In this document: piece by piece, positions 31,089 through 39,746 of the stretch
Position numbering within the stretch: the first letter of the stretch is position 1
How the letters are laid out: every line of letters starts with the position of its first letter
NCBI GenBank assembly: GCA_022482625.1
Contig: JAKVOU010000001.1
Coordinates: 2,528,784 to 2,592,783 of the forward strand
Source: Spirochaetia bacterium
GTDB taxonomy: Bacteria > Spirochaetota > Spirochaetia > Sphaerochaetales > Sphaerochaetaceae
DNA: 64,000 nt
Direction of reading: 5' to 3'
The notes under the pieces: generated by a model
Seen by the model: only the letters and a program-made list of their open reading frames with translations
Databases searched by the model: none
What the model was told of the DNA's origin: nothing
Program-made: the position numbers and the translations under genes

Positions 31089-31396
31089 GATTGTTTCGAT
31101 TTTCCTTGTATTTCCATATGATTTAAAGAACTGCTTAGGAAAGAACTATGGCCGTTGCTGTGTTTTCAAAAAAATAATCCTATTGTTCAGATTCCAAAGC
31201 TATGAAGTTATTATCGGTCCTTTACTGGTCGATTGCAATAATCTTTTTATTGCTGATTCAGGAAAACAAAATATAGAAGATATTTCATTATATCCTGTTA
31301 GCAGAATGGAAAAATTATATTTTTATCTTGTTAATAAGATAAAAATAATATATATTTGTCTTGTATATAAGATAATATAATTCTGAGGTTATGGAT
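31089..31396. other. 308-base A/T-rich intergenic stretch
   Basis: There is no gene-like frame. The right end has two near copies of TTAATAAGATAA/ATATAAGATAA around 31327-31376, just upstream of the DUF4143 gene, perhaps part of its promoter. No terminator for the GntR gene is evident. Confidence 0.45.
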
Positions 31397-32656
31397 ATGG
31401 AAAAACAAATCATCAAGGAAGTGCTTGCGGACGCAAAATACTCGGTGCGACATATAGAATTGATGAAGCGAAAGTATCCTTTTGAAAAAAATGCAAACTA
31501 TGTCCTTACGGGAATAAGACGTGCCGGGAAAACCTTCCTTTTGTATCAAAGGATGCAGGAGTTGGTAGCAGACGGCACAAGCTGGGATGAGATACTTTAC
31601 ATAAACTTCGAAGATGAACGATTGCTGGATTTTTCGGCAATTGATTTGAATATATTGATCGAACTGCATATTGAACTCTATGGAATGAAACCTATTCTGT
31701 TCCTTGATGAACTTCAGAATATACAAGGATGGGAAAAATTCGCACGGCGTATGGCTGACCAAGGCTATCGCATCTATATCACAGGTAGTAATGCCAAGAT
31801 GCTCAGTTCTGATGTTGCTACGATTTTGGGCGGACGTTTCTTGATCCAAGAAGTGTATCCTTACAGTTTCAAGGAGTTTCTTGCGGCTGAAAACGTGGAT
31901 TTTTATTCCCTACAGACATTTTCAACCGCTGAACGTGCACACCTGTTCCGACTGTTCGATGAGTATTTTCGCTTTGGCGGTTTTCCCGAAGTTACGAAAT
32001 ATACTTCAAAACGCTCTTTTCTTTTGAGCCTTTATCAGAAAATATTCCTAGGAGATATTGGTGCACGGCATAATCTCAATAATATATTTGCATTACGTGT
32101 CATGATGAAGAAGGTCGCGGAAGCTACAGGTCAGCCGCTTTCCTTTAATAGACTTAGAAATATCATTGCTGCGACGGGAACAAAAATAGGAACATCGACA
32201 ATAATAAACTATGTAGAGTATGCAAAGGAAAGCCGGATTCTGTTTGGCCTGCATAACATAGCTGCTAAGTTATCTGATAAGGAAAGTTCTCTGAAATACT
32301 ATTTTGCAGATAATGGACTTCTGTCCCTTTTCTTGATTGATTACAAGACAGCTTTGCTTGAGAATCTGGTTGCACTGGAACTTATCAGACGTTATGGTCA
32401 AGATGATGCCGTATACTACTATAAGAACAAGATTGAAGTAGATTTTTACGTACCTGAGCAGGAACTGGCTATCCAAGCGTGCTATGCACTGACTGATTTG
32501 ACAATCGAAGAGAGAGAAGCAATGGCATTGACAAGGCTATGCAAGGTTCTTCCATGCAGGACTTTGCAGATTATAACCTATGATACCGAAAAAACTCTCT
32601 CAAGCAATGGACGTGCCATACAAGTCCTGCCGGTTTGGAAATGGTTGTTGGAATAG
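31397..32656 (+). CDS. AAA_14/DUF4143 family ATPase, second copy
   Basis: This protein of about 419 residues starts at 31397, because GAGG is eight bases before that ATG; the ATG two codons earlier is too close. Walker A is GIRRAGKTFLL near 37-47, Walker B PILFLDELQNIQGWE near 93-107, then the sensor YITGSNAKML. The DUF4143 half has YQKIFLGDIGARHNL and a C-terminal KNKIEVDFYVPEQELAIQACYAL resembling a nuclease-type active site. It is only distantly similar to the copy at 21.8 kb, so the two arrived separately. The biological role of the family is unknown. Confidence 0.88.
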   Translation: MEKQIIKEVLADAKYSVRHIELMKRKYPFEKNANYVLTGIRRAGKTFLLYQRMQELVADGTSWDEILYINFEDERLLDFSAIDLNILIELHIELYGMKPILFLDELQNIQGWEKFARRMADQGYRIYITGSNAKMLSSDVATILGGRFLIQEVYPYSFKEFLAAENVDFYSLQTFSTAERAHLFRLFDEYFRFGGFPEVTKYTSKRSFLLSLYQKIFLGDIGARHNLNNIFALRVMMKKVAEATGQPLSFNRLRNIIAATGTKIGTSTIINYVEYAKESRILFGLHNIAAKLSDKESSLKYYFADNGLLSLFLIDYKTALLENLVALELIRRYGQDDAVYYYKNKIEVDFYVPEQELAIQACYALTDLTIEEREAMALTRLCKVLPCRTLQIITYDTEKTLSSNGRAIQVLPVWKWLLE

Positions 32657-34235: not shown

Positions 34236-35690
34236 ATGCAGAATATTGACTTTGATAATCTTGCACAGTATCGGGAAAATAATCGGCTCGAGGTAAAAAG
34301 TGCAGAAAAAGGTCTTCCTAAAAGTCTATGGGAAACTTATTCTGCATTTGCAAATACGTCAGGTGGAAATATTATTCTGGGAGTAAAAGAAAACAAAGAT
34401 CACTCTTTTTACATTACTGGAGTCACCGGACAGGATCGACTGCTCAAAGAATTCTGGGATACGATAAATAACCGCAAGAAAGTAAGTGTAAACATCCTGA
34501 CAGACAGCATGGTTTCAGTTGACAAGGCAATGGGAAAAGATGTTATCTGCATTGCTGTACCACGTGCCAATCGTACTGATAAACCTATATACATCGACAA
34601 TGACATATTTTCCGGAACATTTCGTAGAAATGGTGAAGGGGATTATCACTGCACACGAGAAGAAACAACAAATATGCTACGTGATCAAAGTGCCATTTCC
34701 CAGGATAGCAAACTGTTGGAAGAGATGGATATCAATGTCCTTGATCAGGATGCTGTCAAACGATATCGTACCATTTTTTCAAATGTCAGACCCGGTCATG
34801 TGTGGACAACATTGGCGGATGAATTGTTTCTTGAGAAGATCGGAGCTATAGCTCACGGTAGGGAAGATGGAAAGTTGCATCCTACAGGAGCAGGTCTTTT
34901 GATGTTTGGGTCTGAATACTCCATTGTCCGTGAATATGGTTCATATTTTCTTGATTACCGAGAAGAACTGTCTCCATCAACCCGATGGACTGACCGTGTG
35001 ATTTCCAGTAGCGGTGACTGGAGTGGCAATGTTTTCGATTTCTTTTTTCGTATCTATGGTAAGCTTGTTTCAGGGATTAAGATACCGTTCAAGTTGAAAC
35101 AGGAAACCAGGATTGAGGATACTCCGGCACATAAGGCAATCAGGGAAGCACTTGCAAATGCGCTTATCCATGCAAATTACTATGGCCGGCGTGGAATTGT
35201 CATTATAAGAAAACAGGGCAGTATCAGCATTTCAAATCCTGGGACGCTTCGGATAGCACCGGAAGAGGCAATCAGCGGGGGGCTTTCGGATCCACGTAAC
35301 AGTATACTGATCAAGATGTTCAATCTCATCAATATCGGTGAACGTGCTGGTAGCGGGTTACCCGAAATCTTTTCGGTATGGAAACAGAATGGATGGAAAA
35401 CCCCTGAACTGAAGGAATCTTTTGATCCTGACAGAACGGAACTGTTGATATCGCTTCCGGTATCAAACCAGAAAAGTAACCAGAAAAGTAACCAGAAAAG
35501 TAACCAGAAAAGTAACCAGAAAATTCTGGAATTGATGAAAAACAATCCGGCTATCACAATAAAACAGATGATGTCAGAGGCAGGCCTTTCAGAAAGCGGA
35601 ATAAAAAAGATTGTAAAAGTGTTGAAAACGAACGGAATCATACGCCGTGTCGGGTCAGACAAAGCTGGGCATTGGGAAGTAATGGAATAA
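34236..35690 (+). CDS. AlbA_2/Schlafen-like domain protein with repeat linker and wHTH
   Basis: This 484-residue protein starts at an ATG after TAGGAGC. Residues 15-140 form the AlbA_2 (Slfn AAA_4) domain: NRLEVKSAEKGLPKSLWETY, FANTSGGNIILGVKE, then IAVPRANRTDKPIYID and GTFRRNGEGDYHCTREE. Residues about 290-400 resemble the C-terminal HATPase_c_4 region: HKAIREALANALIHANYYG, ISNPGTLRIAPEEAISGG and NIGERAGSGLPEIF. Five SNQK repeats at residues 410-429 link to a winged helix (TIKQMMSEAGLSESGIKKIVKVLKTNGII). It is probably a nucleic-acid-binding regulator. It lies just upstream of a TrlF-like/AlbA_2 pair but with its own 290-base gap. Confidence 0.87.
   Translation: MQNIDFDNLAQYRENNRLEVKSAEKGLPKSLWETYSAFANTSGGNIILGVKENKDHSFYITGVTGQDRLLKEFWDTINNRKKVSVNILTDSMVSVDKAMGKDVICIAVPRANRTDKPIYIDNDIFSGTFRRNGEGDYHCTREETTNMLRDQSAISQDSKLLEEMDINVLDQDAVKRYRTIFSNVRPGHVWTTLADELFLEKIGAIAHGREDGKLHPTGAGLLMFGSEYSIVREYGSYFLDYREELSPSTRWTDRVISSSGDWSGNVFDFFFRIYGKLVSGIKIPFKLKQETRIEDTPAHKAIREALANALIHANYYGRRGIVIIRKQGSISISNPGTLRIAPEEAISGGLSDPRNSILIKMFNLINIGERAGSGLPEIFSVWKQNGWKTPELKESFDPDRTELLISLPVSNQKSNQKSNQKSNQKSNQKILELMKNNPAITIKQMMSEAGLSESGIKKIVKVLKTNGIIRRVGSDKAGHWEVME
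35463..35522 (+). repeat. five tandem 12-base units encoding SNQK
   Basis: Copies at 35463, 35475, 35487, 35499 and 35511 encode Ser-Asn-Gln-Lys. The last four are identical (AGTAACCAGAAA); the first differs in its Ser codon (TCA) and in one following base context. The unit length is a multiple of three, so copy-number changes would alter the linker length between the ATPase-like part and the winged helix without breaking the frame. Confidence 0.95.
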
Positions 35691-35925
35691 TCGGCTTTTT
35701 TCTCCAATGTCAAATGTCTGTGCATAATGTGGAAGGTTTTTAGTTAGGTTTCATTTGATAGGAAGTTATTTTCTTGTTTCCATGGTTTTTGTGACAATAG
35801 GAGGATAATTCGGGAACTGGGAAGTTAGATATGGTTCTTACTGTACGATATCCTTGTACTGTTTGAAGATGAAGCCAAGGCTTGTTACCATAATATCATT
35901 ATCATGGTCATGAAGGCTGAATTTA

Positions 35926-35962
35926 TGCTATAATCATAGTCAGAGCTTAGATATCGCTCTGA
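35926..35962 (+). promoter_or_regulatory. extended -10 promoter and 5' leader hairpin of the TrlF-like operon
   Basis: TATGC followed by TATAAT (35929-35934) forms an extended -10 box (TG one base upstream). Transcription would start about 35941, where TCAGAGC (35940-35946) can pair with GCTCTGA (35956-35962). The hairpin would be at the very 5' end of the mRNA, 18 bases before GGAGG and the ATG at 35980. Confidence 0.6.
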
Positions 35963-35979
35963 ATAGTATCGGAGGAATT

Positions 35980-38607
35980 ATGCTGAATATCTTTCAAAAT
36001 GGTTCAAGGTGGCTGAAGGCTGATTTTCATCTTCATACGATTTCCGATTCGGAATTTTCTTATAGTAAGCATGAGAACAAAGACTTTGTATCAGACTATA
36101 TAGCTAAATTGAAAGAACAGCAGATTTATGTTGGCGTAATAACGAATCATAACAAGTTCAATAGCACAGAATTTTCTGTTTTGAGTAGTGAAGCTGAAAA
36201 AGAAGGAATATTTTTACTCCCTGGGGTTGAACTTTCAGTCCATGAAGGAGCCGGAGGACTCCATGTACTGGTCGTGTTTGATGAACCTTGGTTACAAGGC
36301 AACTGTATTGGTACTGCGCTGTCTACTATTTTCAGTGGAAAAATTCCGGATGATTATGAGGATCAAAACGGATATGCGGATAAGTCCCTGAAAGAAACTA
36401 CTAAGATTCTGGATGAATTTCACCATGATTATTTTTATATATTTGCACATGTGAATCAAAAAAGTGGCTTGTTTGAAGAATTGGATATCGGAAGGATCAA
36501 AGACCTTTTCAATAACCCTAACATTGCCAAAAGGATCCTTGGGTTTCAGAAAGTAGAGGTGCAGCAAAAAAAGGATAATCTGATTCAAGAAATAGGCAAG
36601 CAGAATTATCCTGCAGAGGTAGAGGGATCTGATCCTTCTGCCATTGAAGAAATCGGTTCAAAGAAGGGTGACACATGGATCAAGATAGGTAGTTACAATT
36701 TTGAAGCTATCAGGATGGCTTTATTGGATCATATACATAGAACCAAGGCAGAGCAGCCAGAACATGTACGACATTCCTACATTAGAAGCATCAGTTTTGA
36801 AGGAGGGCTCCTCGATGGGAAAACAATTGACTTTTCTTCTCAACTCAATACGTTGATAGGTATCCGAGGCAGTGGGAAGTCTGCCATACTCGAATCTATT
36901 TGCTATGTTTTGAATTTCCCAGACAGAAACACAAGAATCGACCATGAATACAAGGACCGATTGGTGGATTATGTCCTTGGCAGCGGTGGAAGAATAAAGC
37001 TGGTGACCATTGATGAAAATGGTCAGGAATTTGAGATTTTCAGAACACTCAACAGGGAACCGGAAGTGTTTGTATCTGGCACCGAAGAACCAGGAATTGC
37101 GATAAGGAAAACCGCTATACATTGTCCGTTGTTTTTTGGACAAAAAGAACTTTCTTCCCGAGGTGAACATTTTGATCAGGAGTTGCTTGGTAAACTACTG
37201 GGAGATAAACTGGTTCCCATACGTAGGGAAATCATAGAAAAGAAAGGTAAGATCGTTGATATCATTACTATCTTGTCCAAGCTCAATGGCCTTTCCGATC
37301 ATATAAAAACTTTGGAAGATACCATAAGGGACTGCAAATTCAATCTTAGGAAGTTCAAAGAATTCGGTATCGAGGACAAGTTCAGGGGACAGACCGAATT
37401 TGCTTCTGATAAACGAACAATAGAATCAATGATAAAAATGTGCATGGATTTACGTGAAGCCTTGCTCCAAGTCCATGGAACCATGTCTGAAACCTATAAC
37501 GCTACTTCTGTTACTCTTTCAGATCAGAACAGTGATATTGCTGAAGTTTTGAAACCTTCATATGAGGTGGTGTCTACAAGCTTGAAACAAATAATGGAGC
37601 TAGCTGATAGACTTGAAGCTTCCAGGCAGAATATGGAGAAAGTCTATGGCAGTTTCAAGGAGAAGGAGCATGAATTCTCGGAGCAGTTTGCAAAAATCCG
37701 TAGAAGCATTGAGAAGGAAATAAGAAGTAAAGGAATTGACTCCGTCCAACTTGAAGATTATCCGATGTTACATGAAAAAATTGCAAAGAGCGAAAATCGT
37801 CTGAACCTTCTAGAGAAACAACAGCAACAGGAAGAACTTCTGAAGACAAAACTACGGAGAGAATTACACGCCCTTGCAGAGTTATGGAGAAAGGAATTTT
37901 CTATAATTGAAACAGAATTGGGTATCATAAACTCTACTCAGGGTGCCATACAGATTTCTGCAGAATTTGAGGGTGACAAAGACAGTTACCTACAGTATCT
38001 GCAATTATCTTTCAAGGGGAGTGGTTTGATGAAAAATGCTCTTTCAAAGCTGGTTGAGAACTCTAAGGATTTTATTGCAGTCTATGATGATTTTGATGGT
38101 GCCTGTAATTCTTTTCCTGATGCTTCTCGAGAAAAATTCCGTTCATCTGTACAAAAACAATTGGGAGATCTCCTTACGTATCAGGTTCCAAACTCGTATT
38201 CGATTACCTATCATGGCAAGGAACTGAAGCAACATTCATTGGGGCAACGGGCTTCTGCTTTGATTTTGTTTGTCCTTGGACAGAAAGGCAATGATGTTAT
38301 TATCATAGACCAACCGGAAGATGATTTGGACAACCAAACTATATATGAAGAAGTGATCAAGCAGATAATTGCATTGAAACCTGACATGCAATTTATTTTT
38401 GCAACACATAATGCCAATATTCCCGTACTTGGAGATGCAGAAATGGTTCATACGTGTTCTTATGTCGATACCGATGGAAAAACCTCCATCGCTGTTGATT
38501 CCGGAAGTATTGATAATCAGAATACGCAAAAATCCATTATAAGTATAATGGAAGGTGGTGAGGTTGCCTTTGAAAGAAGAAAGGAAATATATGAATTATG
38601 GAATTAG
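35980..38607 (+). CDS. PHP-domain AAA/SMC-like ATPase (TrlF family)
   Basis: This 875-residue protein is started by GGAGGAATTATG. Residues 10-260 form a PHP metallophosphoesterase domain: DFHLHTISDSEFSY (His17, His19), GVITNHNKFN, LPGVELSVHEG and YIFAHVNQKSG supply the expected His/Asp/Glu metal ligands. An SMC/ABC-type ATPase follows: Walker A GIRGSGKSAILES near 294-306, a long helical region of about 400-640 likely to be coiled coil, a signature-like HSLGQRASALILFVLG near 747, Walker B VIIIDQPEDDLDNQ near 771, and an H-loop FATHNANIP. The DQPEDDLDN wording is shared with RloC/DndD-like defence and repair ATPases. It overlaps the following AlbA_2 gene by ten bases. Likely a nucleic-acid-triggered phosphoesterase; a defence role is inferred. 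Confidence 0.85.
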   Translation: MLNIFQNGSRWLKADFHLHTISDSEFSYSKHENKDFVSDYIAKLKEQQIYVGVITNHNKFNSTEFSVLSSEAEKEGIFLLPGVELSVHEGAGGLHVLVVFDEPWLQGNCIGTALSTIFSGKIPDDYEDQNGYADKSLKETTKILDEFHHDYFYIFAHVNQKSGLFEELDIGRIKDLFNNPNIAKRILGFQKVEVQQKKDNLIQEIGKQNYPAEVEGSDPSAIEEIGSKKGDTWIKIGSYNFEAIRMALLDHIHRTKAEQPEHVRHSYIRSISFEGGLLDGKTIDFSSQLNTLIGIRGSGKSAILESICYVLNFPDRNTRIDHEYKDRLVDYVLGSGGRIKLVTIDENGQEFEIFRTLNREPEVFVSGTEEPGIAIRKTAIHCPLFFGQKELSSRGEHFDQELLGKLLGDKLVPIRREIIEKKGKIVDIITILSKLNGLSDHIKTLEDTIRDCKFNLRKFKEFGIEDKFRGQTEFASDKRTIESMIKMCMDLREALLQVHGTMSETYNATSVTLSDQNSDIAEVLKPSYEVVSTSLKQIMELADRLEASRQNMEKVYGSFKEKEHEFSEQFAKIRRSIEKEIRSKGIDSVQLEDYPMLHEKIAKSENRLNLLEKQQQQEELLKTKLRRELHALAELWRKEFSIIETELGIINSTQGAIQISAEFEGDKDSYLQYLQLSFKGSGLMKNALSKLVENSKDFIAVYDDFDGACNSFPDASREKFRSSVQKQLGDLLTYQVPNSYSITYHGKELKQHSLGQRASALILFVLGQKGNDVIIIDQPEDDLDNQTIYEEVIKQIIALKPDMQFIFATHNANIPVLGDAEMVHTCSYVDTDGKTSIAVDSGSIDNQNTQKSIISIMEGGEVAFERRKEIYELWN

Positions 38608-39746
38608 TTGAACTATATGATATATTGTTGAAGGGTGAAGATAGCAAGAACCAATTCAAGCAGAATTTTACCAATTCTGATAGTTTGGCTGCAGAAATGG
38701 TGGCTTTCAGCAATAGCGATGGAGGAAGGATTTTTATCGGGGTTGCTGATGATGGTGCGATAGCAGGTCTTTCTGCTGAAGATGTTCGTAGATTGAATAT
38801 GATGATTTCCAATGTTGCTTCTCAGCATGTTCATCCAGCAATCAACCCTATGACAGAAAACATATTGACAGATGAAGGTTCTGAAATCATTGTGGTTGCT
38901 GTTCCTGTAGGCTTATGCAAGCCTTATTCAGATAACCAAGGTATCATTTGGGTAAAAAGTGGGGCAGATAAACGAAAAGTGACTGCCCGTGAAGAATTAC
39001 AGCGTATGTTTCAGGAAGCAGGGCTGGTTTATGCGGATGAAGTTCCTGTAAACGGTTTGACGGCTACGGATATAGATTTGAAGTATTTCAGTACTTTTTT
39101 TGAGAAACTTTATGGGGAATCCGTTGATGCGCAGCAGAAAACTTTATTACATATTTTGGAAAATATGAATTTGGCAAAGGATGGTTTCCTTAATGTGGCG
39201 GGAGCCTTGCTCTTTTCAAGAAATGTCAAGTATAAGCTGCCATTGTTCATCGTCAAGGCAGTGCATTATCCTGGTACCGATATTGATACTGCCAGATATG
39301 AAGACAGCAGAGATTTTTCTGGATTGCTGGAGGAAGTATATACTGATACGCTTTCTTTTATTCTGAGCAATGTGCCTTATCGGCAAAATGATCAAAATGT
39401 AAATTCAACTGCAGTACCTGTAGTAGCAAAGACCGTATGGGAAGAGCTTTTGTCCAACGCACTTTTTCATCGTGACTATTTTGTTGCGGCTCCAGTCCGT
39501 CTCTTTATGTTCAGTAACCGTGTAGAACTTGTTAGTCCTGGGCATTTACCTAATAATCTGACGATTGAAAATATCAAAGCAGGAAATTCAGTGAGTAGAA
39601 ATCCTATACTTACTTCTTACGGAAGTAAAATACTTCCTTACCGTGGCCTTGGAAATGGCATAAGGCGGGCATTGAAACTGCATAAGAAGATTACATTTGT
39701 AGATGACAGAGCCGGAAATCAATTTAAGGCAATTGTTTTCTATTGA
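38598..39746 (+). CDS. AlbA_2/Schlafen-like protein coupled to the TrlF-like ATPase
   Basis: This 382-residue protein has its ATG inside the last codons of the previous gene (overlap 38598-38607), so the two are translationally coupled. The AlbA_2 domain covers about 12-135: ESKNQFKQNFTNSD, EMVAFSNSDGGRIFIGVADDG, VAVPVGLCKPYSDNQG and VKSGADKRKVTAREE. The C-terminal half has VWEELLSNALFHRDYF, ELVSPGHLPNNLTI and GLGNGIRRALKL, the HATPase_c_4-like region seen in this group. It is related in layout to the gene at 34.2 kb, but without SNQK repeats or the terminal winged helix. It could be the DNA/RNA-binding partner or regulator of the PHP-ATPase. Confidence 0.87.
   Translation: MELVELYDILLKGEDSKNQFKQNFTNSDSLAAEMVAFSNSDGGRIFIGVADDGAIAGLSAEDVRRLNMMISNVASQHVHPAINPMTENILTDEGSEIIVVAVPVGLCKPYSDNQGIIWVKSGADKRKVTAREELQRMFQEAGLVYADEVPVNGLTATDIDLKYFSTFFEKLYGESVDAQQKTLLHILENMNLAKDGFLNVAGALLFSRNVKYKLPLFIVKAVHYPGTDIDTARYEDSRDFSGLLEEVYTDTLSFILSNVPYRQNDQNVNSTAVPVVAKTVWEELLSNALFHRDYFVAAPVRLFMFSNRVELVSPGHLPNNLTIENIKAGNSVSRNPILTSYGSKILPYRGLGNGIRRALKLHKKITFVDDRAGNQFKAIVFY

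What the first reader, a model, noticed from the sequence alone, without database searches (positions are those of the whole stretch)
35980..39746. Overlapping PHP-AAA ATPase and AlbA_2 gene pair: candidate undescribed nucleic-acid-targeting system
Seen: an 875-residue protein joins a PHP metallophosphoesterase (HxH at 17/19 plus further ligands) to an SMC-like ATPase with complete Walker A, signature-like and DQPEDDLDN Walker B motifs. Its last codons overlap the start of an AlbA_2/HATPase_c_4-like protein by ten bases. Known: PHP-ATPases of the TrlF type and RloC-like ATPases occur in defence loci; AlbA_2 domains bind nucleic acids and include Schlafen-type nucleases. Inference: ATPase senses, PHP cleaves, AlbA_2 binds or regulates. 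The conserved coupling of the two would be the new part.
Basis: partly seen in the sequence, partly recalled or inferred. Interest (0 to 1): 0.78.

Follow-up and report, generated by a model that had tools for sequence, protein, structure and literature searches.

The report
TrlF–TrlG growth-arrest pair, RM-associated
This overlapping gene pair is a new copy of an already described two-gene module (TrlF–TrlG, known from a heat-triggered growth stop in Photorhabdus), and its relatives sit repeatedly inside DNA restriction operons, which suggests a back-up anti-phage growth-arrest device rather than a new kind of system.

Summary
In detail: an 875-aa PHP–SMC-like ATPase overlaps a 382-aa AlbA_2/HATPase_c_4 protein by ten bases. 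The pair is not undescribed. The ATPase scores 492 bits against NCBIfam TrlF (cut-off 350). Its partner is TrlG of the temperature-restriction locus (TRL) of Photorhabdus (PMC7554251): same domain boundaries, 55% identity, and 10 of 11 published TrlG loss-of-function missense positions carry the same residue. Coupling is real and old: TrlG follows TrlF with a short overlap in most named relatives across many phyla, and the two evolve together (distance r 0.92). The defence idea gains support that I found in no paper of the library: relatives lie inside type I, type III, BREX-like and DISARM/Hma-like operons (22 of 56 non-redundant loci directly abut such a gene; type III methylase in 11/65 near-upstream versus at most 1/109 distal genes). 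My reading is a PrrC/PARIS-like back-up module. The window copy is an orphan, away from any restriction gene found. No phage test of TrlFG is known to me. Novelty: new member of a known kind.

The parts
35980..38607 (+). trlF: 875-aa PHP domain (about 1-260) plus Rad50/SMC/RecF-type ATPase head (266-848) with an internal coiled coil
   Evidence: NF045780 492 bits over cut-off 350, residues 7-871; AlphaFold2 pLDDT 87; fold match to Rad50 3qku Z 21.6, 310 residues, rmsd 7.6, and Smc1 head 1w1w Z 21.4, 290 residues, rmsd 3.5, over 266-848
38598..39746 (+). trlG: 382-aa Schlafen-type AlbA_2 domain (14-128) plus GHKL/histidine-kinase-like ATP-binding domain (Pfam 298-363; fold match 214-382)
   Evidence: Pfam; model pLDDT 88.8; matches to SLFN11/13/14 and SAMD9 tRNase domain Z 10-11, SpoIIAB/HK853 Z 9-10, DIP2311 over the whole length
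38598..38607 (+). ten-base overlap of trlF end and trlG start (translational coupling inferred)
   Evidence: sequence; short overlaps in most of 69 relatives
35971..35975 (+). GGAGG ribosome-binding site of trlF
   Evidence: sequence, 4 bases before the ATG
35905..35934 (+). promoter-like site TGGTCA-18-TATAAT with extended -10, 45 bases before trlF
   Evidence: consensus match 10/12; scan total 29 against 21.0 (sd 4.8) in shuffles, so weak evidence
34236..35690 (+). neighbouring 484-aa AlbA_2 + HATPase_c_4 + winged-helix protein; may or may not belong to the module
   Evidence: Pfam; same architecture as the Schlafen back-up effectors reported at BREX loci

Best explanation
The pair is trlF-trlG, a horizontally moving two-gene growth-arrest module whose wider family serves as a back-up to DNA-modification defences. 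Shown: identity, coupling, and frequent nesting in restriction operons. Inferred: TrlF, a Rad50/SMC-like ATPase with a PHP domain, monitors DNA (ends, or the state of the companion restriction complex) and restrains or licenses TrlG. Inferred from published genetics: TrlG is the effector; its Schlafen-type AlbA_2 domain acts on nucleic acid and its GHKL ATP-binding domain is the switch, so that release of TrlG stops growth when the first-line system is defeated or the cell is stressed (heat, in Photorhabdus). The window copy is an orphan module without restriction genes beside it.
For: Identity: NF045780 over cut-off; TrlG architecture equals that in PMC7554251; 10 of 11 missense loss-of-function positions identical (S16, V35, A36, A75 at 74, R126, A193, P318, S331, N335, G354; only R80 differs, H79), both domains hit. 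Effector role: 16 distinct trlG alleles and none in trlF, which is 2.3 times longer; chance about 5e-9 if both were equal targets per base. Coupling: TrlG adjacent in 69 of 98 loci; mirror-tree r 0.92, best of 1000 permutations 0.35. Defence context: type III methylase in 11/65 near-upstream genes against at most 1/109 distal genes, Fisher p below 1e-4; hsdR-trlF-trlG-hsdS-AAA-hsdM on an IncC plasmid and four chromosomal or draft contigs; mod-trlF-trlG-res, BrxX-like-trlF-trlG-PglZ, helicase-trlF-trlG-DUF1156. A lone TrlF relative sits between gpA and gpQ of a P2-like phage. Patchy: TrlF over cut-off in 20 of 393 genomes of the phylum, TrlG proper in 1 of 4 genomes of the genus.
Against: No phage phenotype is known to me for any TrlFG; the only published phenotype is temperature-dependent growth arrest. 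The window copy has no restriction gene beside it; those found in its genome are over 700 kb away. More than half of the non-redundant loci show no restriction gene within 5 kb by the reference set used, though many contigs are short. The Schlafen catalytic Glu equivalent to SLFN14 E211 is Gln in 60 of 67 TrlGs, so nuclease activity is doubtful. That TrlF controls TrlG is not shown. Distal control genes come from the same loci and are themselves partly defence genes.
Confidence: 0.5

Rival explanations
1. TrlF works like E. coli Ppl: the PHP domain is a DNA exonuclease gated by its own ATPase, and TrlG is an accessory nucleic-acid-binding regulator.
For: Same domain order as Ppl; Ppl is reported as an ssDNA 3'-5' exonuclease that senses 3' ends and nucleotide depletion; H17, H19, E84, D218 are almost invariant; TrlF exists without TrlG in a Bacillota/Fusobacteriota clade and in a P2-like phage.
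Against: Classical PHP motif DxH is replaced (mostly DxK) in nearly all TrlG-linked TrlFs, His in 3 of 67; TrlF scores far below the Ppl cut-off (170 against 1000); trlF mutations never relieved the Photorhabdus arrest.
Confidence: 0.25
2. TrlFG is a stress or temperature regulator of growth, as first published, with no defence role; nesting in restriction operons reflects shared mobile elements.
For: Photorhabdus operon is induced by temperature up-shift and arrests growth; the window copy is an orphan near metabolic genes.
Against: Position between mod and res, or between hsdR and hsdS, in short-spaced operons of several unrelated system types is hard to explain by shared elements alone.
Confidence: 0.15
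3. Toxin-antitoxin module: TrlF is simply the antitoxin of TrlG, maintained by addiction.
For: Overlapping genes; trlG but not trlF is lost under selection against arrest; presence on plasmids.
Against: A large conserved PHP-ATPase with intact ATPase motifs is more than an antitoxin needs; TrlF occurs without TrlG.
Confidence: 0.1

Closest known systems
TRL operon (trlR-trlF-trlG) of Photorhabdus laumondii, PMC7554251
   Same: Both proteins, their order, the overlap, and nearly all residues whose mutation abolishes TrlG function.
   Different: No trlR-like small gene upstream in the window; TrlF only about 42% identical; temperature phenotype unknown here.
Ppl single-gene anti-phage protein
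   Same: N-terminal PHP domain joined to an NTPase; significant match 8-337.
   Different: 170 bits against a cut-off of 1000; Ppl is described as a single-gene system.
Bacterial Schlafen back-up effectors of BREX loci (PMC12839542)
   Same: AlbA_2 plus minimal histidine-kinase-like domain, embedded in modification-based defence loci.
   Different: TrlG lacks the winged helix, carries Gln for the catalytic Glu, and is tied to TrlF, which a word search of that paper (Trl, PHP) did not find.
PrrC / RloC and PARIS (AriAB)
   Same: ABC/Rad50-like ATPase linked to restriction systems, with a growth-stopping effector; PrrC is silenced by a linked type I enzyme (abstract of PMC2610378).
   Different: No PrrC/RloC-type or AriB Toprim domain found; only weak motif-level matches to AriA.

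Membership tests
TrlF family (NF045780) | full-length score over the curated cut-off | tested here: met
   492.1 bits against 350, residues 7-871 of 875, profile 1-943/944
TRL operon | trlG directly downstream of trlF with short overlap | tested here: met
   ten-base overlap; Photorhabdus loci L069/L077 and plasmid loci show the same order
TRL operon | TrlG architecture AlbA_2 + HATPase_c_4 and residues needed for function | tested here: met
   domains 14-128 and 298-363; 10 of 11 missense positions identical
TRL operon | small regulator trlR upstream | tested here: not met
   no ORF of more than 23 aa lies between 35691 and 35979 on the + strand; the upstream gene is a different AlbA_2 protein
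TRL operon | temperature-induced growth arrest | not testable with these tools
   needs culture work
Ppl anti-phage protein (NF042955) | score over curated cut-off | tested here: not met
   170.3 bits against 1000
Schlafen RNase | AlbA_2 fold | tested here: met
   Pfam 77.5 bits; SLFN13 5yd0 Z 10.2, rmsd 2.4, 107 residues
Schlafen RNase | catalytic Glu pair (SLFN14 E206/E211 by alignment) | tested here: not met
   E14 kept in 67/67, but Q19 in 60/67 where SLFN14 has E211
GHKL ATP-binding domain | N-box E..xN and glycine-rich lid motif | tested here: met
   E283, N287 in 67/67; G352 65/67, G354 62/67; SpoIIAB Z about 10
PARIS (AriAB) | AriA ATPase with AriB Toprim partner | tested here: not met
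   weak AriA hits (best 1.2e-08); partner is AlbA_2/HATPase with no Toprim match
RloC/PrrC | PrrC/RloC-type AAA_13 and anticodon-nuclease domain | tested here: not met
   no AAA_13 or other such Pfam match to either protein at E 0.001
anti-phage defence system | protection against phage | not testable with these tools
   only gene-neighbourhood evidence here

The most novel reading that the evidence does not exclude
TrlF-TrlG is a general guard module of prokaryotic DNA-modification defences: the same two-gene cassette has been inserted between modification and restriction genes of type I, type III, BREX-like and DISARM/Hma-like systems, senses their failure through a PHP-Rad50-like ATPase, and fires a Schlafen-derived effector whose altered catalytic site (Glu to Gln) implies an unknown arrest chemistry; the Photorhabdus heat arrest is a misfiring or repurposing of it.
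Probability: 0.35. Interest if true: 0.75.

Novelty: new member of a known kind. Interest (0 to 1): 0.48.

Why it matters
TrlF-TrlG is published as a temperature-restriction locus and annotated only as 'TrlF family ATPase' and 'RNA-binding protein'. Showing that it nests in several unrelated restriction-type systems turns an odd heat phenotype into a testable hypothesis: a shared back-up effector of restriction, carried on IncC and other plasmids. It would also explain a class of Schlafen-like proteins that have lost one catalytic Glu.

Tried and rejected
Undescribed pair: rejected, published as TRL. PDC-M49: TrlF has moderate PDC-M49A matches, TrlG none to a PDC-M49 partner, so not filed there. 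PHP degeneracy as a consequence of having TrlG: rejected, DxK is also the commonest form in TrlFs without TrlG. An alternative conserved downstream partner in TrlFs lacking TrlG: none found, their downstream genes do not resemble each other. Every TrlG needs TrlF: not absolute, G324 carries TrlG 191 bases from a contig start with no TrlF end in the bases before it. The key ABC-ATPase classification paper (10.1093/nar/gkaa726) is not held, so it may already mention PHP-ATPase/Schlafen pairs. Fold matches for the PHP domain were not among the rows listed; its assignment rests on sequence profiles and motifs.
Full report
OBSERVATION. TrlF has its own GGAGG site and a promoter-like sequence just upstream, which is weak evidence. 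A deep set of relatives shows H17, H19, H57, E84, H157, D218, the Walker A, SLGQ signature, DQPEDDLDN and H810 to be nearly invariant.

IDENTITY. The ATPase matches NCBIfam NF045780 (TrlF family) along its whole length, 492 bits against a cut-off of 350; Ppl (170 bits, cut-off 1000) and Spaf_1101 (172, cut-off 475) are not met. The partner matches no NCBIfam model, but its Pfam layout, AlbA_2 14-128 and HATPase_c_4 298-363, is that printed for TrlG of the Photorhabdus temperature-restriction locus: 14-128 and 298-365 (PMC7554251). Photorhabdus TrlG (L069, L077) carries the wild-type residue of every published point mutation at the published number. Ten of the eleven missense positions are identical in the window protein: S16, V35, A36, A75 (A74 here), R126, A193, P318, S331, N335, G354; R80 is H79. 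The window TrlG is 55% identical to that of L069. So the pair is a TRL pair. The third TRL gene, trlR, is missing here.

CONSERVED COUPLING. In 80 named loci found with a TrlF alignment plus loci of the window's phylum with a TrlF hit, 98 loci in all, TrlG lies directly downstream on the same strand in 69, with a start-to-stop distance of -12, -18 or -21 in 54 of these 69. This sample favours relatives close to the window protein. In the less biased draw of 393 genomes of the phylum, 20 genomes hold a full-length TrlF over the cut-off, and 9 of these 20 (window included) have TrlG adjacent. TrlF and TrlG distances correlate at r 0.92 over 52 loci; the best of 1000 permutations is 0.35. The TrlF tree mixes phyla (for example a spirochaete copy with Pseudoalteromonas at 92% identity, Enterobacter with Azospira at 98.6%), i.e. 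horizontal transfer. Within the window's genus TrlG proper is found in 1 of 4 genomes and in its family in 2 of 61, with a clear score gap to other AlbA_2 proteins (571 and 479 bits, then 198 or less). This is not a housekeeping distribution.

NEIGHBOURHOOD. Near-upstream genes (two nearest, at least 150 aa) match type III methyltransferase profiles in 11 of 65 cases; among 109 genes more than 5 kb away in the same loci at most one does (Fisher p below 1e-4). Near-downstream genes are rich in ResIII helicases (10 of 63, against 2 of 109 distal). At least 22 of 56 non-redundant loci directly abut (under 200 bases, same strand) a restriction-type gene. Several are sandwiches: mod-trlF-trlG-res (L091, L105), hsdS-trlF-trlG-hsdR (L101, L045), Eco57I/BrxX-like-trlF-trlG-PglZ (L057), SNF2/NOV_C helicase-trlF-trlG-DUF1156 methylase (L081, L082, L043). 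On IncC plasmid pNDM-1_Dok01, on a Tn7-like element, the order is hsdR-trlF-trlG-hsdS-AAA-hsdM with overlapping ends; the same six genes recur on Enterobacter, Azospira, Pseudogulbenkiania and Roseateles contigs. A more distant TrlF stands alone between gpA and gpQ of a P2-like Yersinia phage; from general knowledge this is the tin/old defence region of P2. The window copy itself has no restriction gene beside it; its genome's HSDR_N and N6_N4_Mtase hits lie more than 700 kb away.

STRUCTURE. The TrlF model (pLDDT 87.0) has an ATPase head over 266-848 that matches Rad50 (3qku, Z 21.6, 310 residues, rmsd 7.6) and the Smc1 head (1w1w, Z 21.4, 290 residues, rmsd 3.5); Foldseek hits are MukB, SMC, RecF, RecN and JetC. 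The PHP part was identified by profiles and motifs only. Its last motif is DxK in 55 of 67 TrlG-linked TrlFs (S in the window) instead of DxH, so classical catalysis cannot be assumed. The TrlG model (pLDDT 88.8) has an N-terminal Schlafen fold (SLFN13 Z 10.2, 107 residues, rmsd 2.4; SAMD9 tRNase domain Z 11.1, 136 residues, rmsd 3.1) and a C-terminal GHKL fold (SpoIIAB Z 10.1, 123 residues, rmsd 3.2). By profile alignment TrlG E14 and Q19 fall on SLFN14 E206 and E211. E14 is invariant; residue 19 is Gln in 60 of 67. E211A is the mutation used in solved SLFN14 structures (titles).

MECHANISM. In Photorhabdus, clones able to grow at 36 C carried 16 different trlG alleles and no trlF allele; deleting the whole operon also relieves the arrest. 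If trlF were equally needed, the chance of this split by target size is about 5e-9. Hence TrlG is the arresting part in the one system studied, and both of its domains are needed: the alleles fall in AlbA_2 and in the GHKL domain, including G354 in the glycine-rich lid. The genetics fit TrlF as restrainer or sensor, not as the arresting nuclease; that step is inference. The published analogues are PrrC, silenced by a linked type I enzyme and activated by a phage anti-restriction factor (PMC2610378 abstract), PARIS, and Schlafen back-up effectors in BREX loci (PMC12839542). I therefore favour a restriction-linked back-up growth-arrest module.

NOVELTY. The pair, its synteny and a phenotype were published in 2020; I found no paper in the held library that links TrlFG to phage defence, but one key classification paper is not held and the preprint on bacterial Schlafens was not available. 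The window is a new member of a known kind; the multi-system nesting is the part worth following.

Noticed in passing
window 34236-35690 (+): A second AlbA_2 + HATPase_c_4 protein with a winged helix (484 aa) just upstream of trlF; by eye it keeps both Glu of the Schlafen pair (E14, E19) and has a tandem SNQK repeat in the linker before the winged helix.
   Followed up: partly
L136:17056-18171; also L061, L063, L064, L087: A 371-aa protein with an AAA_13 C-terminal match is a constant gene of the hsdR-trlF-trlG-hsdS-AAA-hsdM operon.
   Followed up: partly
L139:7992-10610: TrlF relative annotated 'chromosome partition protein' in Peduoviridae phage vB_YenM_42.18, between gpA and gpQ, without TrlG.
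   Followed up: partly
L140:1343-3959: TrlF relative split over two ORFs beside the integrase of a 14-kb Vinavirales (PM2-like capsid) Vibrio element.
   Followed up: no
L104, L108, L114, L115, L117-L121, L124, L125: A supported TrlF clade of Bacillota and Fusobacteriota without TrlG and with no common downstream partner.
   Followed up: partly
L064, gene after trlF: TrlG open frame is only 148 aa in Pseudogulbenkiania, within an otherwise whole hsd-trlFG operon.
   Followed up: no
TrlF residue 220 and TrlG residue 19 across relatives: Two oddities that are conserved family traits: PHP motif DxH replaced by DxK, and the Schlafen catalytic Glu replaced by Gln.
   Followed up: partly
G000:C1:2657270-2658337 and 2795058-2796017: Two further AlbA_2/HATPase-type genes in the same genome, not followed beyond the search hit.
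   Followed up: no
window 31391-32656 (+): AAA_14/DUF4143 ATPase upstream of the locus.
   Followed up: no
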